From: Brachybacterium sp. SGAir0954
GTDB taxonomy: Bacteria > Actinomycetota > Actinomycetes > Actinomycetales > Dermabacteraceae
Reading direction: 5' to 3'
DNA: 64,000 nt
Assembly (NCBI RefSeq): GCF_005490785.1
Contig: NZ_CP027295.1
Location: 3,038,001 to 3,102,000, forward strand
Shown here: piece by piece, positions 16,880 through 50,031 of the stretch
How positions within the stretch are numbered: the first letter of the stretch is position 1
Layout: each line of letters opens with the position of its first letter
Notes under the pieces: generated by a model
Database searches by the model: none
Seen by the model: only the letters and a program-made list of their open reading frames with translations
Told to the model about the DNA's origin: nothing
Translations under genes and position numbers: made by a program

Positions 16880-17794
16880 TCACTCGGCGGCGGGAGCCTC
16901 GGTGGACTCGGCGGCCTCCGCGGCCGGGGCCTCGGCGGCCGGGGCCTCCGCGGTCTCGGCGGCGGGCGCCTCGGCCTCGACCGACTTCTCGGCCGGGGCA
17001 TCCTGCTGCTGGACCTCGGACTGGGCCAGGAGCTCGCGCTCCCACTCGGCCAGCGGCTCGGCGTCGACGGCGGAGACGTTCTTCTCGCCGCCGGTGGACT
17101 TCGCGTGACGCTCCTGCAGGCCGGCGGCCACGGCATCGGCGATGACGCGGGTCAGCAGGGTGACGGAGCGGATCGCGTCGTCGTTGCCCGGGATCGGGTA
17201 CGCGACCTCGTCGGGATCGCAGTTGGTGTCCAGGATCGCGACGACGGGGATGTTGAGCTTCTGCGCCTCGTCGACGGCCAGGTGCTCCTTGTTGGTGTCC
17301 ACGACCCACACGGCGCTCGGCGCCTTGCCCATGTCGCGGATGCCGCCGAGGGTCTTCTCGAGCTTCTCCTTCTCGCGGCGCATCATCAGCAGCTCCTTCT
17401 TGGTGCGGCCGGAGGAGGCCACATCGTCGAAGTCGATCTGCTCGAGCTCCTTGAGGCGGTTGACCCGCTGGGAGACGGTCTGCAGGTTGGTGAGCATGCC
17501 GCCCAGCCAGCGCTGGTTCACGTAGGGCATGCCCACGCGGGTGGCCTGCTCCTGGATGGACTCCTGGGCCTGCTTCTTGGTGCCGACGAACAGCACGGTG
17601 CCGCCGTGGGCGACGGTCTGGCGCACGAACTCGTAGGCCTTGTCGATGTACGACAGGGTCTGCATGAGGTCGACGATGTAGATGCCGTTGCGCTCCGTGA
17701 AGATGAAGCGGCGCATCTTGGGGTTCCAACGACGGGTCTGGTGCCCGAAGTGCACGCCGCTCTCCAGGAGCTGGCGCATGGTGACGACTGCCAT
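16880..17794 (-). CDS. rpsB: 30S ribosomal protein S2
   Basis: The 304 residues begin with the conserved [20 protein letters not shown] and contain [29 protein letters not shown] and [20 protein letters not shown]. The last 60 or so residues are Ala/Glu/Pro-rich repeats (EAPAAE units), typical of actinobacterial S2. The start at 17794 has GAGGA about 9 nt upstream. It is the first gene of rpsB-tsf, with a long leader. Confidence 0.97.
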
Positions 17795-18054
17795 GATCGG
17801 TGTCCTCTTCTGGCCCTGGGCTCGCACGGCGTACCTGTCGGGGCATCCGTGGTCCTCGCGCAGGACCTGCATTCTCGGTTGTTCCCCGCGACCGGGTGGT
17901 GCGGGGCCTGGTGCCCGGGTCACCGGCCGCCTCGTCCCGCCCCGGTCACCGATCCGGGGATCAGCGGCTCCGAGGACGATCGAGGACCGTCGGCCGGCGG
18001 ACCCTGGTGGGCACGCGAAGTCATCCGGACGGACCGGATGCTGGGAGCAGTCTA
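17795..18054 (-). promoter_or_regulatory. rpsB promoter and long leader
   Basis: The -10 TAGACT lies at 18054-18049, giving a leader of about 250 nt before rpsB. Near its 5' end CATCCGG and CCGGATG form a 7-bp stem-loop (18022-18040). Long structured leaders are usual for autoregulated ribosomal-protein operons. I cannot assign this one to a known RNA family. No gene is seen in the whole 17795-18214 stretch. Confidence 0.5.
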
Positions 18055-18214
18055 TCCGACGCCGAGGCACCGCATGGCGCGTCCTGCGTCACGTGGCGGC
18101 GGTGGATGCGCATGCCCCGGGGAGGGACGGCCGGTCTCTCCTCCCCCGGCGCGCACCGTCCACCGCCGGGCTCCCCGGGGACCGCGATGCGCCCCGGCCC
18201 GCTTCGATGGCGGC

Positions 18215-18949
18215 ATGCCCCGGTCACGCCTGCCCTCCCCGCACCCGCCGATGCCGCCCCTCCGGCCTCTCCCCCGCCCGGCGCCCCCGCCTGTGCTGCG
18301 GCGGCTCCTCGTGGTGGTCGTGCTCGTCGCGCTCACCCTCCTCGCGCTCCCCGAGCCCGGGGCCGGCGCGGAGGGGTCGGACCGGTGGCGCTGGCCCGCC
18401 GCCCCTCCGCACCCCGTGCTGCGCGCCTTCGAGGCCCCGGAGCACCGCTACGGAAGCGGCCACCGCGGTATCGACGTCGGCGTCCCGGCAGGGGCCGAGG
18501 TCCATGCCGTGGAGGCGGGCACCGTGCACTTCGCGGGGAAGGTCGCCGGACGGGGCGTGGTCTCGGTGCGCCATGCCGACGGGCTGCTGTCCACCTACGA
18601 GCCCGTGGCGGCGACGGTCTCCGCCGGGGACCCGGTGGGGGCGGGGTCGACGCTCGGGACGATCGGGGCGGTCGACGGTGCACTGTCGCACTGCGCCCCG
18701 TCGACCTGCCTGCACCTCGGGGCGCGACGCGGGGAGGAGTACCTCGACCCGCTGCTCCTGCTCGGGATGCGCGGGCCGAGCGTGCTCGTGCGCTGGGACG
18801 GGGTCGGCTCGGGCGGCGCCGGGGCGGGGCCCGCTCCCCTGCTCAGCGGGGATGCGCTCGCCACCGCCGGGCCCTCGTCGTCACGGGTGGCCCCTGTTCC
18901 GGGAGGGTCGTCGGTGCGCGCTGGTGGCCGCGCGGCGACCGCGGACTGA
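18215..18949 (+). CDS. exported M23-like (LytM fold) protein, possibly inactive
   Basis: 244 residues: a Pro-rich cytoplasmic start, a hydrophobic segment (LLVVVVLVALTLLAL) as signal peptide or anchor, then an M23 domain. The first zinc motif is present as HRGID (His near 83, Asp near 87). The second motif, normally HxH, reads CLH (Cys near 165, His near 167), so the usual catalytic histidine is replaced by cysteine. LGARRGEEYLDPLLLL completes the fold. It may bind rather than cut peptidoglycan, or activate an amidase. The start is uncertain: no ribosome site is visible, and an ATG 12 codons later is possible. Confidence 0.75.
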   Translation: MPRSRLPSPHPPMPPLRPLPRPAPPPVLRRLLVVVVLVALTLLALPEPGAGAEGSDRWRWPAAPPHPVLRAFEAPEHRYGSGHRGIDVGVPAGAEVHAVEAGTVHFAGKVAGRGVVSVRHADGLLSTYEPVAATVSAGDPVGAGSTLGTIGAVDGALSHCAPSTCLHLGARRGEEYLDPLLLLGMRGPSVLVRWDGVGSGGAGAGPAPLLSGDALATAGPSSSRVAPVPGGSSVRAGGRAATAD

Positions 18950-38957: not shown

Positions 38958-40412
38958 TCAGTCGCCCAGCAGGGCGTCCACGAAGGAGTAGGTGTCGAAG
39001 GGGGTGAGGTCGTCCATCCCCTCGCCGAGGCCCACCATCTTCACGGGCACGCCGAGCTCGCGCTGCACGTTGACGACGATGCCGCCCTTCGCGGTGCCGT
39101 CGAGCTTGGTGAGGACGATGCCGGTGATGTTCACGGCCTCGGAGAACACGCGCGCCTGCTGCATGCCGTTCTGCCCGGTGGTGGCGTCGATGACGAGCAG
39201 GACCTCGGCGACCTGGTCGCCGTGCAGGCCCTTCTCCGCGACCCGGCGTACCTTGCCGAGCTCGTCCATGAGGCCCTTCTTGTTCTGCAGGCGCCCCGCG
39301 GTGTCGATGATGACGACGTCGACGCCCTGGTCGATGCCCTGCTTCACGGCGTCGAAGGCGACGGCGGCGGGATCGGCGCCGTCCTTGTCCGAGCGCACGG
39401 TGTCGACCCCCACGCGGGAGCCCCAGGTGGCGAGCTGGTCCGCGGCGGCGGCGCGGAAGGTGTCCGCCGCGCCGAGGACGACGCTGCGCTCCGCGGCCAC
39501 GAGCACGCGGGCGAGCTTGCCGACGGTCGTGGTCTTGCCGGTGCCGTTGACACCCACCATGAGGATGACGGAGGGGACGGTCTCGCCGTCCGGCGCGGTG
39601 CGCACGGTCGCGGCGATCCGGCGGTCCAGCTGCGGGTCCACGAGGCCCACGAGCTCCTCGCGGAGCACCTCGCGCACGGCGGCCGGGTCCTCGGTGCCGA
39701 GCACCTGGATGCGGCGGCGGAGGTTCGCGAGCAGCTCGTCGGTCGCGTCGGGGCCGAGGTCCGCGAGCAGCAGCGTCTCCTCGATCTCGTCCCAGGTGGA
39801 CTCGTCGACGGTGGAGCGGGTGAGCAGCCCGAGGATGCCGCGGCCGATCGAGCCGGAGCGGGAGAGCCGGTCGCGGAGGCGGACCATGCGGTCCTGCGGG
39901 GCCTCGGGGGTCTCGATGACCGCGACCGACGGGCGCTCGGTGGTGGGGGTGCCGGCGACGTCCTCGACCGGGGCGGACTCCTCGGCCGACTCCTGCGCGG
40001 AGGGCTGCGCGGCAGGCTCCGCGGCATCGGGCTCGACGGCCGCCGTCGCGGGCTCCGCCGCGGTGGGCGCGTCGGCGCGGGTCGCCTCGTCGCCCGCCGG
40101 TGCGGCGGTCTGCTCGGGCGCCTCGGCGGTCGGGGCGTCCTCGGTGGGGGCGGCGGCGGTGTCCTCGGCGGGCGGCGCCGCGGGCTCGGCCGGTGCGGAG
40201 AGCGTGTCCGCCCAGGTGGGCGCCGCGGGGCGCTCCTTCGTGGCGGTCGGCGCCCCGGTCGAGCCGGTGCCCTCGGGGCCCTGCTGGTCGTCCGTGCCGG
40301 CGTCGGGGCTCTTGCCGCCCCGGCCGCGCAGCACGGCCCAGGCGCCGGCGCCGATCACCAGGAAGACGCCACCGCCTCCGGCGATCAGGGCGAGGATGTC
40401 GTTCGGATCCAC
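38958..40412 (-). CDS. ftsY: signal recognition particle receptor FtsY
   Basis: SRP receptor at the membrane. 484 residues: an N-terminal hydrophobic anchor (IAGGGGVFLVIGAGAWAVL), a long Ala/Pro/Glu-rich region (about 35-160), then NG domains with LMVGVNGTGKTTTVGKLA, IIDTAGRLQNKKGLMDEL and LTKLDGTAKGG. The GTG start has GGAGGTGA upstream. Anchored FtsY with an acidic linker is typical of actinobacteria. Confidence 0.97.
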   Translation of the reverse strand: MDPNDILALIAGGGGVFLVIGAGAWAVLRGRGGKSPDAGTDDQQGPEGTGSTGAPTATKERPAAPTWADTLSAPAEPAAPPAEDTAAAPTEDAPTAEAPEQTAAPAGDEATRADAPTAAEPATAAVEPDAAEPAAQPSAQESAEESAPVEDVAGTPTTERPSVAVIETPEAPQDRMVRLRDRLSRSGSIGRGILGLLTRSTVDESTWDEIEETLLLADLGPDATDELLANLRRRIQVLGTEDPAAVREVLREELVGLVDPQLDRRIAATVRTAPDGETVPSVILMVGVNGTGKTTTVGKLARVLVAAERSVVLGAADTFRAAAADQLATWGSRVGVDTVRSDKDGADPAAVAFDAVKQGIDQGVDVVIIDTAGRLQNKKGLMDELGKVRRVAEKGLHGDQVAEVLLVIDATTGQNGMQQARVFSEAVNITGIVLTKLDGTAKGGIVVNVQRELGVPVKMVGLGEGMDDLTPFDTYSFVDALLGD

Positions 40413-40503
40413 GGGTCACCTCCGAGGTCGGGGAAGCCGGTCGAAGCGGCGGGCCAGCGGCCAGTCTAGGCGGCGGTCCCCGGGAGGCGTCCCGGACCCG
40501 GGA

Positions 40504-40722
40504 TCAGGAATCCGCGGTCCCCGAGCGTCCGGAGACGTCCGTGCGGGAGGTGCGCGAGCTGTGACGCGCGGCGGAGCGGCGCTCCGCGCTCGCCTGGAAA
40601 TACGCGGCAGGATCCCCGTCGCGGTCACCGCGCAGGTTGGGCAGCGCGACGGCGGCGAGGATCACCAGGGCCACCACCAGGGCGACCAGGAGGAAGACGA
40701 CGGTCACCAGCGTCATGGTCAT
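40504..40722 (-). CDS. small single-span membrane protein
   Basis: 72 residues from the ATG at 40722: a hydrophobic helix (LVTVVFLLVALVVALVILAAVAL) followed by a hydrophilic, Ser/Arg-rich cytoplasmic or extracellular tail. No family recognised. The start is set by CACAAT ending exactly 6 nt upstream, the leaderless pattern of this window. It lies between ndk and ftsY, each with its own spacer. Confidence 0.6.
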   Translation of the reverse strand: MTMTLVTVVFLLVALVVALVILAAVALPNLRGDRDGDPAAYFQASAERRSAARHSSRTSRTDVSGRSGTADS

Positions 40723-40728
40723 TCCCAC

Positions 40729-40734
40729 ATTGTG
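40729..40734 (-). promoter_or_regulatory. -10 element, leaderless promoter of the small membrane protein
   Basis: The minus strand reads CACAAT, then GTGGGA, then ATG at 40722. Confidence 0.5.
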
Positions 40735-40742
40735 CACGCCGA

Positions 40743-40773
40743 GCCCGCCCGTGACCGGGAGATCCGGGCGGGC
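40743..40773 (-). terminator. hairpin between ndk and the small membrane protein gene
   Basis: GCCCGCCCG and CGGGCGGGC pair over 9 bp around a 13-nt loop, ending just before the next -10 box. It may also overlap that promoter's -35 region. Confidence 0.45.
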
Positions 40774-40807
40774 GCGGCGCAGTGCGACGGAGTTCTCATC
40801 GCTCGGT

Positions 40808-40823
40808 GGGCGCCGGAGCGCCC
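40808..40823 (-). terminator. hairpin after ndk
   Basis: GGGCGC and GCGCCC pair around CGGA, 13 nt after the ndk stop. Short, no U-tract. Confidence 0.4.
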
Positions 40824-40836
40824 GGGACGGGGCGGA

Positions 40837-41262
40837 TCAGCCCAGCTCGGGGAACCAGATGCCGATCTCGCGAGCGGCGGACTCCTCGGAGTCGGAGCCG
40901 TGCACGAGGTTCTGGATGACGGGGAGGTCCTGCTCGCGGGCGAGGTCGCCGCGGATGGTCCCCGGGGCGGCGGCGGTGGGGTTGGTCGCCCCGGCGAGGG
41001 AGCGGAAGCCCGCGATGACCTCGACGCCCTCGACGACGAGGGCGACGAGCGGGGCGGCGCCCATGTACTCCACGAGGCCGGGGTAGAAGGGCTTGCCCTC
41101 GTGCTCGGCGTAGTGGGCGGCGAGCTCCTCGGCGGTGGCGGTGCGCTGGGCGAGGGCGACGATGTCGTAGCCCTTCGCCTCGATGCGACGGATGATCTCC
41201 CCACGCAGGCCGCGCTGGACGGCGTCGGGCTTGAGCAGGACGAGGGTGCGCTGTGCGGTCAT
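40837..41262 (-). CDS. ndk: nucleoside diphosphate kinase
   Basis: Balances nucleoside triphosphate pools through a phosphohistidine. The 141 residues include LVLLKPDAVQRGLRGEIIRR, AGATNPTAAAPGTIRGDLAR and the active-site histidine in NLVHGSDSEESA. The ATG is 6 nt after TACCCT, suggesting a leaderless message separate from DUF4233-folC 76 bp upstream. Confidence 0.96.
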   Translation of the reverse strand: MTAQRTLVLLKPDAVQRGLRGEIIRRIEAKGYDIVALAQRTATAEELAAHYAEHEGKPFYPGLVEYMGAAPLVALVVEGVEVIAGFRSLAGATNPTAAAPGTIRGDLAREQDLPVIQNLVHGSDSEESAAREIGIWFPELG

Positions 41263-41268
41263 GGCACC

Positions 41269-41274
41269 AGGGTA
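41269..41274 (-). promoter_or_regulatory. -10 element, leaderless promoter of ndk
   Basis: The minus strand reads TACCCT, then GGTGCC, then ATG at 41262. Confidence 0.5.
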
Positions 41275-41338
41275 CCGGCGACGCGGACTGGGACGGCCGA
41301 CGCCCCTCCCCCGACGCCGGGCGCCGAGGGGACGGAGC

Positions 41339-41800
41339 TCAGCGGTCGGCGTCCTCGGCGCCGTCGGCCCCGCGCTCGGCGAGGACCCGGGCGTCCACGG
41401 CGTCCTTCTCCGCGTCGAAGCGGTGCCCCGCGAACAGGCCGTAGACGTAGAGCAGGGCGAAGAAGGTGCCGACCACCCACATCAGCCCCACCTGGAGCCC
41501 CAGCAGGATGACGGGCACCTGCAGCGCGACGCCCACCAGGTAGGGCCACGCGCCGCGCCGCAGCAGGCCGCCGCAGGCGACGAGCGCGAGCACGGTGAGC
41601 AGACCCCAGGTCCAGGTGAGGGCGCGCTCGTCCGGCACCAGCTGGTGCGCGACGAGGACGGCGAAGAACACGACGACCGCCTCGACGGTGAGCGTCGTCG
41701 CGGCGAACATGCGCTGGGCGCCGTGCGCGCGCCCCGAGGGCGCGAGCGCGGCGAGCGGGGAGCGGCGGGGCGCGCCGGCGGTGCGATCGGCCATGGTCAC
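41339..41800 (-). CDS. DUF4233 membrane protein
   Basis: 153 residues with four hydrophobic segments (LTVEAVVVFFAVLVAHQL, WGLLTVLALVACGGLL, YLVGVALQVPVILLGLQVGL, VVGTFFALLYVYGLFAG). The folC-DUF4233-ndk order is conserved in actinobacteria; function unknown. The GTG at 41800 overlaps the folC stop (GTGA); an ATG two codons later is the alternative. Confidence 0.9.
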   Translation of the reverse strand: MTMADRTAGAPRRSPLAALAPSGRAHGAQRMFAATTLTVEAVVVFFAVLVAHQLVPDERALTWTWGLLTVLALVACGGLLRRGAWPYLVGVALQVPVILLGLQVGLMWVVGTFFALLYVYGLFAGHRFDAEKDAVDARVLAERGADGAEDADR

Positions 41801-43167
41801 TCCCCCTCCGCGCCGAGCAGCTCGCGGACCTCGGCGGCGAGGGTCACCGACCCGGCGACGACGACGCCGCCGAACTGGTCGCCCTCCTGCTCGGCGAGGT
41901 CCACCGCGAGCTGGATCGCGTCGGGCAGGCTCGCGGTGTCGACGACCCGGTCCTCGTCGTCGAACACGTCCCGGGCGAGGTCGGCGAGGACGTCGGCCGG
42001 GATGGCGCGCGGGGAGGAGGACGCCGTCACGACGACCTGGTCCAGGAGCGGCTCGAGCACGGCCAGGATCTGCTCGGCGTCCTTCTCCTGGAGGATGCCG
42101 ACGATGCCGACGGTGCGGGTGAAGCGGAAGTTCTCGCGGACGGTCGCGACGAGGGTCTCCGCGCCCGCCGGGTTGTGGGCGGCGTCGACGATCATGGTCG
42201 GCGACTGCCGCACGACCTCGGCGCGACCCGGCGAGGTCACCGTCGAGAGCGCGGCGGAGAGCATCTCGCCGTCCAGCGGGATCGTGCCCCCGCCCAGCAG
42301 CGCCTCCGCGGCGGCGACCGCGAGCAGCGCGTTGCTCGCCTGGTGCTCGCCGAGCAGCGACAGGAACACCTCCTCGTAGCGACCCGCGATCCCCTGGAGC
42401 GTGAGCATCTGGCCGCCCACGCCCGGGGTGCGGGCGATGACGCCGATCTGCTCGTCCTGCACGGCGGCCTCCGCGCCGAGCTCCGTGACCCGCTCGCGCA
42501 GCACGTCCATGGCCTCGGGCTCGACCTGCGCCCCGAGCACGGCGATGGCGCGCTCGGTGAGGATCCCGGCCTTCTCCCCCGCGATCAGCTCGATCGTGTC
42601 CCCCAGGTACTCCTGGTGGTCCAGACCGATCGGGGTGATCACGGCGACGTCCGGATCCGCGACACCGGTCGCGTCCCAGGTCCCGCCGAGGCCCGTCTCG
42701 ACGACGGCCACGTCCACGGGGGCGGAGGCGAAGGCCTGGAACGCCATGGCGGTGAGGTACTCGAAGAAGGTCAGCGGGGGGCCGCCCGCCGCGGCGGACT
42801 CCTCGTCGACGATCAGCGCGAAGGGCAGGACGTCCTCGTAGGCCTGGACGAAGCCCTCGTCGTCGATCGCCTCGCCGTCGATCGCGATCCGCTCCGCCGG
42901 GGAGTGCAGGTGCGGGCTCGTGGTGCGACCCGTGCGCAGGCCCGCCTCGCGGAGGATCCGCTCGAGGATCCGCGCGGTCGTGGTCTTGCCGTTCGTCCCG
43001 GCGATGCGCACGGTGCGGTAGGAGCGCTGCGGGTCCCCCATGAGCTCCATGACCCTCCGGATGCGGGAGAGGTCCGGCTCGATGCGGTTCTCGGGGGCGC
43101 GCCGGAGGAGCGCGGCGTAGACCTCGCGCAGCTCGGGAGAGAGGACCCGATGGGACTTCGGGGGCAC
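41797..43167 (-). CDS. folC: folylpolyglutamate synthase / dihydrofolate synthase
   Basis: Adds glutamate to dihydropteroate and folates. The 456 residues contain the ATP loop in IAGTNGKTTTARILE, TSPHLHSPAERIAIDG, VETGLGGTWDATGV and the C-terminal AHNPAGAETL. The GTG at 43167 is chosen because AAGGAG lies 8 nt upstream and the family N-terminus starts there. Unlike many relatives, valS is not upstream; the divergent accessory cassette is. Confidence 0.95.
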   Translation of the reverse strand: MPPKSHRVLSPELREVYAALLRRAPENRIEPDLSRIRRVMELMGDPQRSYRTVRIAGTNGKTTTARILERILREAGLRTGRTTSPHLHSPAERIAIDGEAIDDEGFVQAYEDVLPFALIVDEESAAAGGPPLTFFEYLTAMAFQAFASAPVDVAVVETGLGGTWDATGVADPDVAVITPIGLDHQEYLGDTIELIAGEKAGILTERAIAVLGAQVEPEAMDVLRERVTELGAEAAVQDEQIGVIARTPGVGGQMLTLQGIAGRYEEVFLSLLGEHQASNALLAVAAAEALLGGGTIPLDGEMLSAALSTVTSPGRAEVVRQSPTMIVDAAHNPAGAETLVATVRENFRFTRTVGIVGILQEKDAEQILAVLEPLLDQVVVTASSSPRAIPADVLADLARDVFDDEDRVVDTASLPDAIQLAVDLAEQEGDQFGGVVVAGSVTLAAEVRELLGAEGE

Positions 43168-43204
43168 GGAGGGGCTCCTTCGACGGCTGAGCGGGACGCC
43201 GGCC

Positions 43205-43210
43205 AGTCTA
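43205..43210 (-). promoter_or_regulatory. -10 element of folC-DUF4233
   Basis: The minus strand reads TAGACT, identical to the rpsB -10, with a leader of about 30 nt. The rest of the 233-bp divergent region to 43400 shows no further gene. Confidence 0.5.
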
Positions 43211-43400
43211 CGAGGGCGGCCCCGGCCGCCGGCGGTGCGGGAGCGGCCGTGTGACGAGGCGGACCCCGCGGCCGTTCCTCCCCATCGTCCTTGCGTCCAC
43301 ACGGGGAGTTCTCCCCATGGGCCGGCGGCGGGCGCGACCGTAGCCTCGGCCGGGAGCACAGCATCCGGGACCGCCCGGGTCGGGAGCGAGGAGGCGCACG

Positions 43401-44216
43401 ATGAGCCAGCTGCAGGTCACGCTCGAGGAGGCCGCCGCCCGGGCGGTCGCCGGCGGCGTCCCTCCGGAGGATCTCCACCCCGTGTACCGGGCCCTGCTGG
43501 ACCGTCGCGGCGAGCATGCCCCGGCGTCCCCGGGCACGGCACCGAGCGGGGCGACCGCCGGCCCCGGCTCGCCCGAGGAGCTCGCGCTGATCACCGCGCA
43601 GCTGACCGCACGGGCCCTGCTCGTGCTCGCCGTGACGGATCGCGAGGGCACGCACCGGCTGCGCGCCTCGCTCGCCCCGCAGCGGGTCACGCTCGAGCAG
43701 TCCCACGGGGCGGGGACCGCGCTCCTGGAGCATGCGGAGCTCGAGGCGCTCCCCGCGCGGATCACCGCCCTGCTCGACCGGGCGGGGATCGCCCCATCGG
43801 TGCCCCGGCAGGAGGTGGGACGCGAGGCGGAGGCGCTGCGCCTGACCGATGAGCAGGTCGCGAGCGCCCGGGAGTCCCTCGCCCGTGGGGCGTCCCCGGA
43901 GGCGGCCTTCGGCGCCCTCGGGGACCTCCCCTCCCCGCTGCGGGACGCGCTCACCGCGCGGGGCCCTCGGCTCGCGGCCTCCCTCACGCTGCACGACCCG
44001 CGCCACCGCGCCCTCGCTGGACCGGTCAGCTGGTCGCGGCTGTGGGTGCGCGGAGCGCGCGGCCTGTACCGCACCGACGCGAGCGACGCTCCTCTCGGCC
44101 CGGTCCTCCCCGTGGACGACGGGGACGTGACGGGCAGCCTGCTGGCCGTCATCGAGGAGGGCGTGCGCTTCGCCGCCGCCGCGACGACCGCCCCGAGCAC
44201 GGGCGATCGGCGATGA
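43401..44216 (+). CDS. hypothetical protein, possible EspG-like partner of a type VII substrate
   Basis: 271 residues, no signal peptide or membrane segment. The layout is two alpha/beta halves joined by helix: LVLAVTDREGTHRLRASLAP with HAELEALPARITALLDRAGI in the first, LWVRGARGLYRTDASDAPLG with GSLLAVIEEGVRFAAA in the second. This order resembles the EspG chaperones of mycobacterial ESX systems, but I see no diagnostic motif, so this is inference. GAGGAGG lies 7 nt before the ATG. It overlaps the WXG100-hydrolase gene by 4 nt, the expected place for a dedicated chaperone; an immunity or lipase-partner role is the alternative. Confidence 0.6.
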   Translation: MSQLQVTLEEAAARAVAGGVPPEDLHPVYRALLDRRGEHAPASPGTAPSGATAGPGSPEELALITAQLTARALLVLAVTDREGTHRLRASLAPQRVTLEQSHGAGTALLEHAELEALPARITALLDRAGIAPSVPRQEVGREAEALRLTDEQVASARESLARGASPEAAFGALGDLPSPLRDALTARGPRLAASLTLHDPRHRALAGPVSWSRLWVRGARGLYRTDASDAPLGPVLPVDDGDVTGSLLAVIEEGVRFAAAATTAPSTGDRR

Positions 44217-45742
44217 GCGCGTTCTGCGGCATGGACCCCGCGCAGGTGCGCGACCATGCCCGGCACCTGCAGGACTCCTCGGCCCAGGTCGAGCAGCTCC
44301 GCCTCCGGCTCGACGCCGCCGTGCACGCCGTCGCCTGGGAGGGCGAGGACGCCCACGCCTTCCGCGAGCGCTGGGAGCACGTGGCCACGACGCGCCTGCG
44401 CGATCTCGGCGAGCAGCTCTCGGCGCGCTCGCTCCGCTCGCTCGCGGAGGCCGACGCCCAGGACGCCGCCTCCCGCGACGACGCCGGGCTGCCCGGCGGG
44501 GACGCTCCCCGGTCACCGGGCGCGCCCGGTCCCGGGGCGGACGGTCCGGGCGCAGGCGACGGCCCCCTCGCGGACCTCGCCGGCGCCGCCTCCGACGCCC
44601 TGGGGCACGGGCTGGATGCCGGCATCGACCTGCTCGAAGGCGGGCTCGACGCGCTCGGGATGCGCACCGAGGGCATCGCGCAGTTCCAGCGGGACGCCGA
44701 CCACCTGGGCGGCATCCTCGAGGACTGGGTGACCGGCGAGCGCGTGCCCACCCTCGCCGAGCTGGGCGCCGCCTCCCTGCTCACCGCGGGATCCGCCGGG
44801 GTCGGGCTCTACGAGGCGGCGACCGGGCAGGACACCCCGTTCCTCGACGACCGCCCCGGCGGCATCGTCACGGACGTCCGCACCGAGCCGCTGCCCGCGC
44901 AGGGACCGCGGACCCTGCAGGACCTCGTCGTCGCGAACGACGCCCTGCGACCGGGCGGCGCGGCCGCCGTCGAGGCCGGGCAGATCGGGATCCAGCGGAT
45001 CCGGCCGGCCGACGGCGGCGAGAGCGTCTACCTCGTGCAGGTCCCGCCCACCGAGGGATCCGGGATCACCGAGGTCCCCGGCGCCTACGGCGGCCAGGGC
45101 AACTCCCGCGACTGGGGATCGAACCTGCGTCTCGTCGCGGGGCAGGACCCGGCCGCGATGGACGACGTGCGTGCCGCGCTCACCGCGGCGCAGGTGCCGG
45201 ACGGCGCCGAGGTCATGATCGTCGGCCACTCCCAGGGCGGGATCATCGCGAGCCATCTGGCCGCCGATCCCACGTTCAACAGCGCGAGCGGGGCGCCCGG
45301 CAGCTACGACGTCACGCACACCTTCTCCGTCGGCTCCCCGATCCAGACCGTCGTCCCCGCCCAGGCCGGCACGCAGAGCGTGAACGTGGGACATGAGGCC
45401 TCGCTCGGCGCGGGCGGGTTCGGCGGCGACCTCATCGCGGAGACGGACCTCGGCGGGCTGCAGGTCGACGGCGGCCACCTCACCGCACCGAACCGTCACG
45501 AGGTGACGCTGGACCCGTACCCGGGCACGAGCTGGAACCCGGTGCCGGTGCTCGAGCGGAACCACGACACCGTCGGGCCCGGTCACGACCCCGATCAGGG
45601 CTACGCCGGCAGCGTGGGCCGGGCGACCGCGGGCGATCCCACACTCTCCGCGCTGCAGCGGGACCTCACCGGCACGTACCTCGGCGAGGGGACGGAGGTG
45701 CTCTCCTCCCAGGTCGTGACCGTGGGGCGCGGGGAGCCGTGA
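44213..45742 (+). CDS. WXG100-like / alpha-beta hydrolase fusion protein
   Basis: 509 residues. The first 70 form a helical hairpin (MDPAQVRDHARHLQDSSAQV and VAWEGEDAHAFRERWEHV) with Trp42-Glu43-Gly44 at the turn, the WXG signature of type VII secretion substrates. A Gly/Pro/Asp linker (about 80-115) and a helical segment follow. The C-terminal domain is an alpha/beta hydrolase with the nucleophile elbow VGHSQGG (Ser near 340), preceded by NSRDWGSNLRLVAG; candidate His residues are in PNRHEV and ERNHDTVGPGH. It probably is an exported lipase or esterase. The start overlaps the upstream stop (ATGA). No EccC or other secretion gene is in the window. Confidence 0.75.
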   Translation: MSAFCGMDPAQVRDHARHLQDSSAQVEQLRLRLDAAVHAVAWEGEDAHAFRERWEHVATTRLRDLGEQLSARSLRSLAEADAQDAASRDDAGLPGGDAPRSPGAPGPGADGPGAGDGPLADLAGAASDALGHGLDAGIDLLEGGLDALGMRTEGIAQFQRDADHLGGILEDWVTGERVPTLAELGAASLLTAGSAGVGLYEAATGQDTPFLDDRPGGIVTDVRTEPLPAQGPRTLQDLVVANDALRPGGAAAVEAGQIGIQRIRPADGGESVYLVQVPPTEGSGITEVPGAYGGQGNSRDWGSNLRLVAGQDPAAMDDVRAALTAAQVPDGAEVMIVGHSQGGIIASHLAADPTFNSASGAPGSYDVTHTFSVGSPIQTVVPAQAGTQSVNVGHEASLGAGGFGGDLIAETDLGGLQVDGGHLTAPNRHEVTLDPYPGTSWNPVPVLERNHDTVGPGHDPDQGYAGSVGRATAGDPTLSALQRDLTGTYLGEGTEVLSSQVVTVGRGEP

Positions 45743-45824
45743 CGACGGCGGGCGGCACGGGGCGCGTGCCCGGAGCCGTGCACGGCGCCGGGGGCACGGT
45801 CGGTGCGCAGGTGGACGCGGGCGC

Positions 45825-46253
45825 TCAGCCCTCGAAGTCGGACAGGAGCACCCCGTCGAGCCGCCCGCGCTCGGCCTCGAGCTCCGGGCGCAGGTCCCAC
45901 ATGTCGTACTCGGCGCCCGACGCGTCGAGCAGGGTGATCGCCCCCGCCTGCCGGTCGCGCTGCTCCTCGCGACCGCTGTGCTCGTAGGCCGCGGCGACGA
46001 TCGCCGCCATCACCGCGCCGAAGGTCTCCAGCGCCTCCTCCGCGGACGCGGCGGAGGTCTCGACGCTCCCGCGCACGTACCGGCGGAACTCGGCCTCGAA
46101 GCCGACCTCGAGGCCGGCGGAGGTCACGCCGTCGACGTCCTCGGCGGCGCGGTTCAGCGCCTTCTCGAGCGAGACCTTCCCCAGGCCGCATCCGCTCAGC
46201 AGCAGCGCCGCCGCCGTGGCGGCGCCGCCCAGGAGTCCGCGTCGTGCCACCAT
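45825..46253 (-). CDS. small lipoprotein, unknown function
   Basis: 142 residues with a signal peptide (MVARRGLLGGAATAAALLLS) and lipobox LSGC. The mature part starts with LEKALNRAAEDVDGVTSAGLEV and continues as one small alpha/beta domain. Two ATGs in tandem (46256, 46253) follow GAGGAGG; the second has the better spacing. It converges on the WXG100-hydrolase gene 82 bp away, so it could be part of that cassette, for example as an immunity or lipid-binding partner, but strand and family do not prove it. Confidence 0.7.
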   Translation of the reverse strand: MVARRGLLGGAATAAALLLSGCGLGKVSLEKALNRAAEDVDGVTSAGLEVGFEAEFRRYVRGSVETSAASAEEALETFGAVMAAIVAAAYEHSGREEQRDRQAGAITLLDASGAEYDMWDLRPELEAERGRLDGVLLSDFEG

Positions 46254-46464
46254 CATCGCCTCCTCGTCAGGTCCTGGTCCGAGCATCGCATCCCCCGGCC
46301 TACTGCGCGCGGCCTGCCCGAGGATGTGGACGACCGCGCTGCCCGGCGGGTCCGCCGCGCACGAGGTCTCCGCCCGGCGGCCCGCGACGGCCGGGAGGAC
46401 GCCGAGCGGAGAGCCCCCGGAACGGGAGGGCCCCGCGCGCAGCCCCTGACGGGGTGCGGCGCGG

Positions 46465-46478
46465 GGTCCCCGGGGACC
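46465..46478. terminator. short palindrome after ileS
   Basis: GGTCCCCGGGGACC is a perfect 14-bp palindrome 5 nt after the ileS stop. It can fold only with a tight loop, so its strength as a terminator is doubtful. The rest of 46257-46483 shows no gene. Confidence 0.35.
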
Positions 46479-46483
46479 GTCGC

Positions 46484-49400
46484 TCAGGACAGGAGCGCCA
46501 CCGACACGGTCACCGTGCCGCCCGCGACCTTCTCGGTCGCGGCATGGGCGCCCGCGGCAGGATCGGCGGGCACCTCGAGCTGCGTCGCGAGCACCTCGCC
46601 GGCCACCAGGTCGCGGTGCGCGGAGACCGCGGCGACGACCGCCTCGTCCCCGGCGACCGTGAGGGCGATGCGGTCGGAGACGTCGAGCCCCGCCTCGCGG
46701 CGCGCCTGCTGGATCGCACGGACCACGTCGCGCGCGATGCCCTCCGCCTCGAGCTCCGGCGTGACCTCGGTGTCGAGCACGAGGAAGTCGCCGCCGCGGA
46801 GCACGCCGATCGCCCGGCCCTGCGTCGCGGAGCCGGAGCCCGCGACGAGGTCCAGGGTGTACTCGCCCTCGACCAGGTCGATGCCGCCGGAGGTGACAGT
46901 GCCGTCCTCCGCCTGGGACCAGTCCCCGCTCTTCGCGCCCTTGATGACGACCTGCACCTGCTTGCCGAGCCGCGGCCCCGCCGCACGGGCGTTGACGCTC
47001 AGCCGCTGCTCCACGCCCATCTCGCGGGCCTCGTCGCCGGAGGCGTCGAGCAGCCGCACGGACTTGACGTTGAGCTCGTCGGCGAGGATCTCGGTGAACG
47101 CCTCGAGGGACGCGGGATCCTGGTGGACCACCGTGAGCTCCGCGAGCGGGAGGCGGGCCCGCAGGCCCGCCTTCTTGCGCACCGCGTTGCCGGCGCTCGC
47201 GATCGCGCGGACGTCGTCCATCTGCACCACGAGCGCCTCGTCCCGCGGGAAGAGGGCGTCGTCCGGCCAGTCCGTGAGGTGCACGGAGCGGCCGCCCGTG
47301 AGCTGCTTCCAGATCTCCTCGGTGACCATCGGCAGCAGGGGCGCGGCGACCCGCAGCAGGGTCTCCAGGCACGTGGAGAGCACGTCGATCGCCTGCTCGT
47401 CGCCCTCCCAGAACCGGTCGCGCGAGCGGCGCACGTACCAGTTGGTGAGCATGTCCAGGTGGTCCTGGATCTGCTCGGCGGCGTCCGCGATCGCGAGCTC
47501 CCGCAGGGACGTGCGCACGACCCGCACGAGGTCCCCGGTGCGGGAGAGCAGGTAGCGGTCCATGACGTCGTCCGACTCGTGCCGCTCCCGGCCGGTGTAC
47601 CCGGTGGGCCGGCCCTCGGCGTCCTTCTCCCCCGCCGCGTTCGCGTAGAGCGCCAGGAAGTACCAGACGTTCCACAACGGGAGCACCACCTGACGGGTGG
47701 CCTCACGGATCTTCGGCTCGTCGACCACGAGGTTGCCGCCGCGCAGGATCGGCGAGGACATGAGGAACCAGCGCATCGCGTCGGCCCCGTAGGTCTCGAA
47801 CATCTCGCGCACGTCGGGGTAGTTGCGCAGGGACTTGGACATCTTCTGCCCGTCCTCGCCCAGCACGATGCCGTGGCAGATCACCGAGGTGAACGCCGGG
47901 CGGTCGAACAGCGCCGTGGAGAGCACGTGCATCATGTAGAACCAGCCGCGGGTCTGCCCGATGTACTCGACGATGAAGTCCGCCGGGTTGTGGGACTCGA
48001 ACCACTCGGTGTTCTCGAAGGGGTAGTGCACCTGCGCGAAGGGCATCGACCCGGAGTCGAACCAGACGTCGAACACCTCGGGGATGCGGCGCATGGTGGA
48101 GCGGCCCGTCGGGTCGTCCGGGTTCGGGCGGGTGAGCTCGTCGATGTAGGGGCGGTGGAGGTTCACCTCGCCGTGCTCGTCCCGCGGGAGGGTCCCAAAG
48201 GCCTCCTCGAGCTCCGCGAGGGAGCCGTACACCTCGACGCGCGGGTGGTTCGGGTCGTCGCTCTTCCACACCGGGATCGGCGAGCCGAAGTACCGGTTGC
48301 GGGAGATCGCCCAGTCGCGGGCACCCTCGAGCCACTTGCCGAACTGGCCGTGCTTGACGTTGCCGGGCACCCAGTCGATCTGCTCGTTCAGCTCGAGCAT
48401 GCGCTCGCGCTGATCGGCGACCTTCACGTACCAGGAGCTGACGGCCTTGTAGATCAGCGGCTTCCGGCAGCGCCAGCAGTGCGGGTAGGAGTGCACGTAG
48501 GACTGCTCGCGCAGCAGCCGCCCCTGCCGCTGCAGGATGCGGATGATCGGGCGGTTCGCGTCGAACACCTGCAGCCCGGCGATCTCGTCGAGGGCCGTGC
48601 CGCGGAAGTAGTCCAGGAACTGGGCGCCGTCGTCCACGGAGACGATGACGGGGATGCCGTACTCGGCGTTGACCTGCTGGTCGACCTCACCGTAGGCGGT
48701 GGCCTGGTGGACCACGCCGGTGCCGTCGTCCGTGGAGACGTAGTCCGCGACGGTGACGATCCACGCGTTCTGCGTGCCCCACTGCTCGCGGTCCTCGGAG
48801 TAGACGGTCCACAGCGGCTCGTAGGCCATGTGCTCGAGCTCGGCGCCGCGATAGGTGCGCGGCTCGATCGCGGCGACGGCCTCCTCGGCGTCGGCGTAGC
48901 CGAGCTCCTTGGCGTGCGCGCCGACGAGCGCCGCGGCGAGCAGGAAGCGGCCCTCCCCCGCGGCGGTGCCGTCGGCCGCGCCGAGCGGACCGGCGGGCAG
49001 CACCGCGTAGCCGAGCTCGGGGCCCACGGCGAGGGAGAAGTTCGTGGGCAGGGTCCACGGGGTCGTCGTCCACGCGAGGGCCTTGACGCCGGCGAGACCG
49101 AGCTCCTCCGCCTTCTGACCGGTGAAGGGGAAGGTGACGGTGACGGTCTGGTCCTGGCGGTCCTGGTAGACGTCGTCGTCCATGCGCAGCTCGTGGGAGC
49201 TGAGCGGCGTCTGGTCGTTCCAGCAGTAGGGCAGCACGTAGTAGCCCTCGTAGGCGCGGCCCTTGTCGTGGAGGGTCTTGAAGGCCCACAGCACGGACTC
49301 CATGAAGGAGACGTCGAGGGTCTTGTAGTCGTTCTCGAAGTCGACCCAGCGGGCCTGGCGGGTGACGTAGTCCTCCCACTCCTTCGTGTACTTCAGGACG

Positions 49401-49783
49401 GAGGAGCGCGCCGCGTTGTTGAACGCCTGGACGCCCATCTCCTCGATCTCCGCCTTCTCCGTCATGCCCAGCTCGCGCATGGCCTCGAGCTCGGCGGGGA
49501 GACCGTGGGTGTCCCAGCCGAAGCGGCGGTCCACCTTGAGGCCGTCCATGGTGCGGAAGCGCGGGATGACGTCCTTGACGAAGCCCGTGAGCAGGTGCCC
49601 GTAGTGCGGGAGGCCGTTGGCGAAGGGCGGGCCGTCGTAGAAGACGAACTCCTCGGCGTCCTCGCGCCGCGCGATCGAGGCGCGGAAGGTGTCGTCGGTG
49701 CGCCAGAACTCCTGGATCGCGTTCTCCAGGGCGGGCAGGTTCGGCGAGGGGACGAGCGGGTCGCCGGAGACCGGGTAGACCAT
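46484..49783 (-). CDS. ileS: isoleucyl-tRNA synthetase
   Basis: Class I synthetase charging tRNA-Ile. The 1099 residues include the HIGH-like motif in [16 protein letters not shown], the CP1 editing domain (about 190-400), KMSKS in [15 protein letters not shown], and the anticodon-binding region ([20 protein letters not shown]). Length and the WDTHGLP segment fit the longer, eukaryote-like IleRS2 type. The ATG at 49783 has GGAGGT 7 nt upstream and lies at the end of a T-box leader. Confidence 0.97.
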
Positions 49784-50031
49784 GGGGGGACCTCCGAGGA
49801 AGCACAGGGGACGGCGGCGGGACATCTGCTGCCCGAGGACGCTCCCGGCGCGGGGCCGGTGGCGCGGTACCACCTCGGTTGGCGTCCCTCGCCGGCCGTG
49901 CCGGTGCGGGGCGCCCCCTTGTTCCTCAGCTGTGACGGGCTGGTCCCGGCGGGTTCTACTGGGCGCGCGGCACGGGGCCGGTGCGCTGTTCTTCCCGCGG
50001 CTCTCCGGTGATGGCCGGGTCGGTGCCGATG
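49784..50031 (-). promoter_or_regulatory. T-box riboswitch leader of ileS
   Basis: The minus-strand leader contains TGGTACCGCG (49872-49863), the core T-box sequence that pairs with the uncharged tRNA acceptor end. Upstream, a stem region carries ATC (50012-50010), an isoleucine codon, as specifier. The leader is about 250 nt and runs to the GGAGGT ribosome site at 49796-49790 without an obvious terminator, which fits the translational T-boxes known upstream of actinobacterial ileS. Confidence 0.88.

What the first reader, a model, noticed from the sequence alone, without database searches (positions are those of the whole stretch)
43401..46253. A WXG100-like/lipase fusion with an overlapping possible EspG-like partner and a nearby lipoprotein
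The gene at 44213-45742 joins an N-terminal WEG helical hairpin to a GHSQGG alpha/beta hydrolase. It overlaps an upstream unrecognised gene by ATGA, and a small lipoprotein converges on its end. Known type VII exported lipases exist in other phyla, with lipoprotein or chaperone partners. This cassette would be an actinobacterial lipase effector or wall-acting enzyme with its own chaperone. The EspG resemblance is only architectural.
Basis: partly seen in the sequence, partly recalled or inferred. Interest (0 to 1): 0.72.

Follow-up and report, generated by a model that had tools for sequence, protein, structure and literature searches.

The report
EspG-fold chaperone paired with exported lipase
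A Brachybacterium-type actinobacterium carries a three-gene set that looks like a lipid-cutting enzyme made for export by a type VII secretion machine, a partner protein with the fold of the mycobacterial chaperone EspG, and a small lipoprotein that probably acts on the enzyme.

Summary
In this Brachybacterium-type genome (genus inferred from named relatives), 43401-44216 and 44213-45742 overlap by ATGA, and a convergent lipoprotein gene lies at 45825-46256. Of 28 fetched genus loci with the first gene, 28 have the lipase and 27 the lipoprotein. The genome holds an FHA-type EccC-like ATPase locus with its own WXG100 genes. The 'only architectural' EspG hunch became a fold match: AlphaFold pLDDT 90.8; all 16 Foldseek hits at E <= 1e-3 are EspG1/3/5; VIA Z 11.5-12.8 against 4.5 for the next fold. 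Sequence homology to Pfam EspG was not found. The lipase has an invariant WxG and an invariant Ser/Asp/His set. The order EspG-like, WXG-lipase, small partner recurs in 7 of 7 Nocardioides, Janibacter and Intrasporangiaceae loci. Best reading: a type VII substrate lipase with a dedicated EspG-fold chaperone and a lipase-directed inhibitor/immunity lipoprotein. The last point is contested: 10 genus genomes keep an intact lipase with neither partner. New variant of a known kind.

The parts
43401..44216 (+). EspG-fold protein, 271 aa (P0001); proposed dedicated chaperone
44213..45742 (+). WXG100-hairpin / alpha-beta hydrolase fusion, 509 aa (P0002); proposed type VII substrate lipase
44213..44216 (+). 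ATGA overlap of the two genes
   Evidence: 4 bp in 24 of 25 aligned loci
44213..44497 (+). N-terminal WXG hairpin with post-helix motif A-x-x-Q-x-x-x-S (A80, Q83, S87), shared with WXG100 proteins of the genome's type VII locus
   Evidence: invariant in 20 of 20 rows: 16 of the 26 lipases, one other WXG fusion, three WXG100s
44894..45739 (+). alpha/beta hydrolase domain (about residues 228-509)
45224..45241 (+). GHSQGG nucleophile elbow, Ser340 at 45230-45232; candidate acids D406 (45428-45430) or D412 (45446-45448); His451 at 45563-45565
45825..46256 (-). lipoprotein, 143 aa (P0003); proposed lipase inhibitor/immunity partner
46188..46199 (-). lipobox LSGC (residues 20-23 of P0003)

Best explanation
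The cassette encodes a type VII secretion substrate, its escort and its regulator. P0002 carries a WXG hairpin with the same post-helix motif as WXG100 proteins of the genome's own FHA-type EccC locus, and a serine alpha/beta hydrolase (lipase/esterase). P0001 has the EspG fold and, encoded just before P0002 in an overlapping gene, most likely binds the hairpin part of P0002 in the cytosol, keeps it soluble and hands it to EccC, as EspG does for PE/PPE and EsaE for EsaD. P0003, anchored outside by its lipid, most likely binds the hydrolase domain and restrains it (immunity or inhibitor). Shown: gene layout, conservation, predicted fold match, invariant catalytic set, presence of an EccC-like machine. 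Inferred: export, lipase activity, binding partners, the role of P0003. The confidence given is for substrate plus chaperone; for P0003 restraining the enzyme I would say about one in two. Rivals 1 and 2 share the core and differ on P0003 and purpose.
For: EspG fold: 16 of 16 Foldseek hits at E <= 1e-3 are EspG; VIA gives 14 EspG entries at Z 11.5-12.8 (208-235 residues aligned, rmsd 5.0-6.0) and the next fold at 4.5. Pairing: 28 of 28 fetched genus loci with P0001 have the lipase; in 7 of 7 loci from other families a P0001-type gene stands directly before the lipase, overlapping by 4 bp in six and 1 bp apart in the seventh. Machine: EccC-like protein of 1488 aa with FHA and FtsK domains, kinase and PP2C genes; an EccC match of E below 1e-78 in 35 of 36 genus genomes. 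Motif: A80, Q83, S87, W42, G44, D46 invariant in 20 of 20 rows including three WXG100s of that locus. Catalytic set invariant. P0003: by genome, a relative at E below 1e-15 in 23 of 24 P0001 genomes and 0 of 10 lipase-only genomes (Fisher p 8e-8; species not independent); more than one copy within one fetched locus at 5 loci (L050, L053, L054, L055, L057). Co-variation given folC+ileS, n = 15: P0001 with hairpin r 0.59, with lipase 0.10; P0003 with lipase 0.60, with hairpin 0.33.
Against: Foldseek's own TM-scores to EspG are only 0.40-0.50 with rmsd 6-11. Profile comparison of the P0001 family with PF14011-type proteins is not significant (prob 4%, E 0.011; reversed controls 0.35-0.43), and PF14011 finds nothing in the genome. 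Ten genus genomes keep an intact lipase with no P0001 and no full-length P0003 relative, so the lipase does not always need the chaperone nor obviously this immunity protein. Five of seven outgroup P0003 relatives show no signal sequence. The lipase domain is conserved (median pairwise identity 64%). Domain specificity of the co-variation fades when three divergent loci are dropped; P0003 also tracks the hairpin weakly; linkage controls folC-P0001 (0.45) and ileS-lipase (0.34) are positive too. No type VII machine gene was seen among the ORFs at 40000-50000. EccC occurs in genomes with and without P0001.
Confidence: 0.7

Rival explanations
1. Antibacterial toxin-immunity cassette in the strict sense: P0002 is a phospholipase that kills neighbours and P0003 is its obligate surface immunity protein, as TslA/TilA in Staphylococcus.
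For: Fast-evolving lipoprotein (median pairwise identity 35% against 64% for the lipase, n = 15) that co-varies with the lipase domain; more than one lipoprotein copy within one locus at 5 loci; TslA/TilA precedent (PMC10730906, passages seen).
Against: Ten genomes have an intact lipase and no full-length P0003 relative; the lipase domain is conserved and the cassette mostly keeps one site between folC and ileS (each found in 21 of 27 loci searched); five of seven outgroup partners lack a signal sequence.
Confidence: 0.35
2. Housekeeping or nutritional exported lipase, like the PE-lipase LipY of ESX-5: P0001 is an export chaperone and P0003 a surface partner (anchor, activator or foldase) of the lipase rather than an immunity protein.
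For: Lipase family at E below 1e-100 in 34 of 36 genus genomes, conserved and mostly syntenic; lipase-only genomes exist; LipY is an ESX-5 secreted triacylglycerol hydrolase (PMC6402100, passages seen).
Against: Extra P0003 copies and P0003 relatives without a signal sequence fit an inhibitor better than an anchor.
Confidence: 0.35
3. The three genes are neighbours by chance or synteny only, and P0001 has an unrelated cytosolic role.
For: The cassette sits in a conserved housekeeping neighbourhood; the folC-P0001 linkage control is positive.
Against: The trio is kept in other families with other neighbours and the third gene in another orientation, occurs at further sites within the genus (L057, L059, L060, L062, L226), and both partners are missing together.
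Confidence: 0.05

Closest known systems
EspG chaperones of mycobacterial ESX systems (EspG1/3/5)
   Same: Predicted fold over most of the chain (VIA Z 11.5-12.8); encoded with a helical-hairpin protein
   Different: No significant sequence match; neighbour is a single-chain WXG-hydrolase, not a PE/PPE pair; encoded beside the substrate, about 1.27 Mb from the EccC-like gene
EsaE of Staphylococcus T7SSb
   Same: EspG fold without sequence homology (reported Dali Z 9.9-10.3 for its model, PMC10653861 passages seen); serves one toxin
   Different: Client EsaD is a nuclease with three small helical partners; no small helical partner gene was seen in this cassette
TslA/TilA lipase toxin and lipoprotein immunity (T7SSb)
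   Same: Type VII lipase with an adjacent lipoprotein (PMC10730906, passages)
   Different: TslA has its helical domain at the C-terminus and Lap partners; here the hairpin is N-terminal and the partner is EspG-fold
LipY, ESX-5 PE-lipase
   Same: N-terminal helical type VII domain, linker, alpha/beta hydrolase; secretion of a LipY fusion depended on ESX-5 in an espG5 transposon mutant (PMC6402100, passages)
   Different: PE domain, not WXG100; no lipoprotein partner in the passages seen; mycobacterial ESX-5 machine

Membership tests
EspG chaperone family | EspG fold | tested here: met
   (predicted model; Foldseek TM 0.40-0.50)
EspG chaperone family | PF14011 sequence profile | tested here: not met
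   no Pfam family for P0001 at E <= 1; none in the genome; profile comparison prob 4%
EspG chaperone family | Binds a type VII substrate's helical domain | not testable with these tools
   only indirect: pairing and co-variation with the hairpin
WXG100 superfamily / type VII substrate | Helical hairpin with W-x-G between the helices | tested here: met
   (PF06013 E 3e-4, under the curated cut-off); P0002 itself was not folded
WXG100 superfamily / type VII substrate | Y-x-x-x-D/E signal after the second helix (motif recalled) | tested here: not met
   read from the alignment: A-x-x-Q-x-x-x-S stands there instead, in the type VII locus WXG100s as well
WXG100 superfamily / type VII substrate | EccC-dependent secretion | not testable with these tools
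   EccC-like gene present
Serine alpha/beta hydrolase (lipase/esterase) | Nucleophile elbow G-x-S-x-G plus conserved Asp and His | tested here: met
   S340, D406, D412, H451 in 26 of 26
Serine alpha/beta hydrolase (lipase/esterase) | Assignment to a curated lipase family over its cut-off | tested here: not met
   only sub-threshold hits
TilA-like immunity lipoprotein | Lipobox-bearing lipoprotein beside the lipase | tested here: met
TilA-like immunity lipoprotein | DUF576 family membership | tested here: not met
   the only Pfam hit up to E 1 is DUF6286 at E 0.008, below cut-off
TilA-like immunity lipoprotein | Inhibits the lipase and protects the cell | not testable with these tools
   lipase-only genomes speak against an obligate role
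T7SSd (Garrett et al. 2024) | FHA-bearing ATPase and Ser/Thr kinase in an actinobacterial locus | tested here: met
   definition from PMC11217815 section 9
T7SSd (Garrett et al. 2024) | TsdH and TsdI (large Ig-like membrane protein); no PPM/PP2C phosphatase | tested here: inconclusive
   PP2C, transglutaminase, RDD and FHA proteins in the locus; no search for TsdH or TsdI was made

The most novel reading that the evidence does not exclude
EspG-fold chaperones are a general partner of single-chain WXG-enzyme substrates, not only of PE/PPE pairs, in an FHA-type actinobacterial type VII system: they recognise the WXG hairpin directly and are encoded as overlapping pairs with their substrate. A second, faster-changing partner family, found as lipoproteins or as forms without a signal sequence, restrains the enzyme domain.
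Probability: 0.5. Interest if true: 0.72.

Novelty: new variant of a known kind. Interest (0 to 1): 0.6.

Why it matters
Garrett et al. 2024 (PMC11217815) name EspG-type chaperones for T7SSa, some T7SSb, T7SSh and T7SSi; their core list for the FHA-type actinobacterial system T7SSd holds none (passages and section 9). A compact chaperone-substrate pair, with natural relatives that have the lipase but lack the chaperone, would let one test what EspG-fold chaperones recognise and why some substrates manage without. It would also add a WXG-first type to the type VII lipases, beside the reversed TslA type and the PE-lipase LipY.

Tried and rejected
Sequence-based EspG membership was tried three ways and failed (PDB profile search, PF14011 in the genome, profile-profile comparison, with 27 of 30 fetched PF14011 loci). 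The P0003 fold search gave a common alpha-beta-beta-alpha-beta arrangement (MamM C-terminal domain Z 8.7, rmsd 2.5, 80 aligned; FliF ring motif E 7e-4); I draw no function from it. PF06259, an alpha/beta hydrolase family I recalled from actinobacteria, does not match the genome. The idea that lipase-only species had lost catalysis, which would have rescued obligate immunity, is wrong: triad and WxG are intact in 12 of 12 (L212-L223).

Limits of the counts. The locus table (28 with, 12 without P0001) covers the loci that I fetched; one search lists further, weaker lipase matches in the genus (such as G029:C22, G025:C1:273580, G016:C23, G008:C1:244828) that were not fetched. One search scored at most 68 candidates per genome and (14 of 297 genomes of the order matched) at most 8, so absence is not proven. 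The other 57 loci (L108-L164, more distant hydrolases) gave no P0001-profile hit at E <= 10 and only weak P0003-profile hits (L123 0.02, L129 7e-4, L154 0.004); L096-L100 gave neither. With the extended P0001 profile an unrelated frame scored E 0.0016, better than L101 (0.005) and L105 (0.012); those two rest on position and on BLAST to L102, L104 and L107 within a seven-protein set.

Mirror-tree caveats: 15 of 25 P0001 loci were used (L048, L050, L051, L054, L057, L059, L060, L062, L063, L066 dropped for a missing partner or for missing or short flanking genes). Without L061, L056 and L052 all pairs correlate at 0.49-0.69, so the domain specificity is tentative. A first run crashed after printing the Fisher test and was rerun with a length filter. 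The gene caller was home-made, trained on four window genes, and mis-started some genes (for example L106 and L210).

Literature: Brachybacterium with type VII secretion gave 1 unrelated paper (listing); 'EspG-like' with type VII secretion gave 0; EspG with Streptomyces gave 5 (listing); WXG100, lipase, EspG and Actinobacteria gave 3 (listing); WXG100, hydrolase and chaperone gave 16, 10 listed; EspG, chaperone and LXG gave 13 (listing). By title and abstract start none describes this cassette. Only open-licence papers are held, so this does not prove absence from print. In PMC11217815 I read sections 9 and 15 and passages; in PMC10730906, PMC10653861 and PMC6402100 passages only.
Full report
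WHAT IS THERE. The window lies at 3038001-3102000 of a single 3,410,111-base contig. The best relatives among named records are Brachybacterium (L085-L095), so the genus is inferred, not given. P0001 (43401-44216, 271 aa) and P0002 (44213-45742, 509 aa) overlap by ATGA; P0003 (45825-46256, minus strand, 143 aa) is a lipoprotein with LSGC. The trio sits between genes that I read as folC and ileS (names by reading, no family scan).

CONSERVATION. P0001 relatives occur in 26 of 58 related genomes: 24 of 36 in the genus and two weak ones outside. Lipase relatives at E below 1e-100 occur in 34 of 36 genus genomes, all but G001 (74% complete) and G024. Profiles of the three families over the genus loci that I fetched gave: P0001 at 28 loci, all with the lipase and 27 with P0003 (L048 lacks it); P0001 absent at 12 lipase loci, of which 2 (L222, L223) have P0003 and 10 have neither (Fisher p 8e-7; related species are not independent). 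L065, a weak P0001 hit from another genus, has none of the three and is not counted. By genome, a P0003 relative at E below 1e-15 is present in 23 of 24 P0001 genomes and 0 of 10 genomes with lipase but no P0001 (Fisher p 8e-8). One of those ten, G020, has a partial match with a stop inside. G001 has a P0003 relative without P0001. At L050, L053, L054, L055 and L057 more than one P0003 relative lies within the fetched locus of a single lipase.

BEYOND THE GENUS. Among the 80 loci of the genome-contig scan, the seven WXG-lipases from Nocardioides (4), Janibacter (2) and an Intrasporangiaceae MAG (1) (L101-L107) each have a gene directly upstream (4-bp overlap in six, 1-bp gap in L107) and a small gene downstream on the same strand (within 42 bp in six; in L106 the start is unsettled). 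L106 and L107 upstream genes match the P0001 profile at 4e-10 and 3e-5. With these two added, L103 matches at 1.9e-25, L104 at 3.5e-6, L102 at 1.6e-5; L101 (0.005) and L105 (0.012) are no better than an unrelated frame (0.0016) but are 47-60% identical to the L102/L104 proteins and match L107 (E 9e-10, 2e-9 in a seven-protein set). Downstream genes match the extended P0003 profile in 7 of 7 at 4.4e-3 or better; L106 and L107 at 3e-13 and 1e-7 with the unextended one. The Nocardioides upstream proteins are short (148-179 aa) and match the profile in patches. Downstream, L106 and L107 have lipobox-like starts (LAAC, ATGC), the other five no signal sequence by eye. In L096-L100 (Dermabacter and relatives) neither partner was found, nor a P0001 relative in the other 57 loci (L108-L164).

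P0001 HAS THE EspG FOLD (PREDICTED). AlphaFold2 on the 25-row family alignment gave pLDDT 90.8 and pTM 0.88. Foldseek against the PDB: 16 chains at E <= 1e-3, all EspG1, EspG3 or EspG5, next hit E 0.023; its TM-scores are modest (0.40-0.50 by query length, rmsd 6-11), as if the parts were shifted. VIA-align: 14 EspG entries at Z 11.5-12.8 over 208-235 residues with rmsd 5.0-6.0, next fold Z 4.5. For scale, the model of EsaE, described as structurally homologous to EspG, was reported at Dali Z 9.9-10.3 (PMC10653861, passages). Sequence similarity is not detectable: no Pfam or NCBIfam family, no PF14011 in the genome, and hhalign with 27 PF14011-type proteins gave prob 4%, E 0.011, against 0.35-0.43 for reversed controls. 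So the fold is met and family membership by sequence is not.

P0002 IS A WXG-FIRST HYDROLASE. W42, G44, D46 and S340, H394, D406, D412, H451 are invariant in 26 of 26 aligned rows. Of 27 further relatives (12 genus loci L212-L223, L096-L107, L224-L226; L224 repeats L106), all keep W-x-G, S340, H394 and H451, and 26 keep both Asp (L097 is gapped there). An alignment of 16 of the lipases with three WXG100s from the type VII locus and one other WXG fusion shows A80, Q83 and S87 after the second helix in 20 of 20 rows; among the 27 further relatives Q83 is kept by all, while six (L213, L223, L097, L100, L103, L107) change A80 or S87. The usual Y-x-x-x-D/E signal (recalled) is not there. EsxA structures are the best PDB profile hits for the hairpin (E 1.4e-4 and 2.8e-3). 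P0002 itself was not folded.

A MACHINE IS PRESENT. At 1,804,035-1,808,501 the genome encodes a 1488-aa protein with FHA and FtsK/SpoIIIE domains, preceded by transglutaminase, RDD/FHA, PP2C, FHA, protein-kinase and one unassigned gene, and followed by five WXG100-type genes. It matches the EccC model at 310 bits, below that model's cut-off of 509, against 100 bits for the next FtsK-type gene. A match of E below 1e-78 exists in 35 of 36 genus genomes, so the machine does not discriminate species with and without P0001. The locus resembles the FHA-type systems named T7SSd/T7SSe (PMC11217815, section 9 read); its assignment is open.

CO-VARIATION. On 15 loci with all genes and full flanks, after removing folC+ileS distance, P0001 tracks the hairpin (r 0.59) and not the lipase domain (0.10), while P0003 tracks the lipase (0.60) more than the hairpin (0.33); hairpin and lipase, though one protein, hardly track each other (0.11). 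P0001-hairpin (0.56-0.69) and P0003-lipase (0.49-0.85) hold in every subset tried, but the contrasts do not: dropping three divergent loci brings all pairs to 0.49-0.69; with 22 loci and the other domain as control P0001 also tracks the lipase (0.54); linkage controls folC-P0001 (0.45) and ileS-lipase (0.34, up to 0.75 in a subset) are positive. This is suggestive of who touches whom, not proof.

WIDER PATTERN. Besides P0002 and the five at the type VII locus the genome has six further WXG proteins. Two of them (2735680 and 900839) are followed by members of a second family, P0004, of similar size to P0001; 26 of 30 fetched P0004-family loci have a WXG fusion within 1.5 kb, against 4 of 30 PF14011 loci.

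MECHANISM AND VERDICT. Most likely P0001 escorts P0002 by its hairpin to the EccC-like machine, and P0003 acts on the hydrolase. The immunity reading of P0003 is favoured by its speed of change, its extra copies and its co-variation with the lipase, and opposed by ten genomes with an intact lipase and no P0003. A regulator or surface partner of a non-lethal lipase remains about as likely; LipY shows that type VII lipases need not be antibacterial toxins (PMC6402100, passages). TslA/TilA is the nearest lipase-lipoprotein precedent (PMC10730906, passages), with the domains reversed. New variant of a known kind; interest 0.6.

Noticed in passing
L208:3542-5462 (genome 2,734,041-2,735,961) and L040:7840-9705: Two other WXG fusions are each followed by a protein of a second family (P0004); 26 of 30 fetched relatives of P0004 lie within 1.5 kb of a WXG fusion. 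Possibly a second chaperone family.
   Followed up: partly
L210:3828-5407 (genome about 2,098,327-2,099,906, minus strand): Another WXG-start protein whose stop overlaps a lipoprotein gene by 4 bp; one search found no second P0003 relative in this genome, so that lipoprotein is of another kind.
   Followed up: no
L038:16749-17352 and 17758-18352: Two WXG100 genes of the type VII locus recur 1000 bp further on as a pair with the same protein sequences, a recent-looking tandem duplication.
   Followed up: no
L038:11036-15502: The EccC-like ATPase has about 100 residues before its FHA domain that look ubiquitin-like by eye; Pfam gave no hit there at E 0.01.
   Followed up: no
L101-L105, downstream gene: P0003 relatives in Nocardioides and Janibacter melonis lack an evident signal sequence, unlike the lipoprotein form in Brachybacterium, L106 and L107.
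   Followed up: partly
L057, L059, L060, L062, L226: A second form of the cassette with a shorter region between hairpin and lipase; in G034, G026 and G160 it occurs beside the usual form in the same genome.
   Followed up: partly
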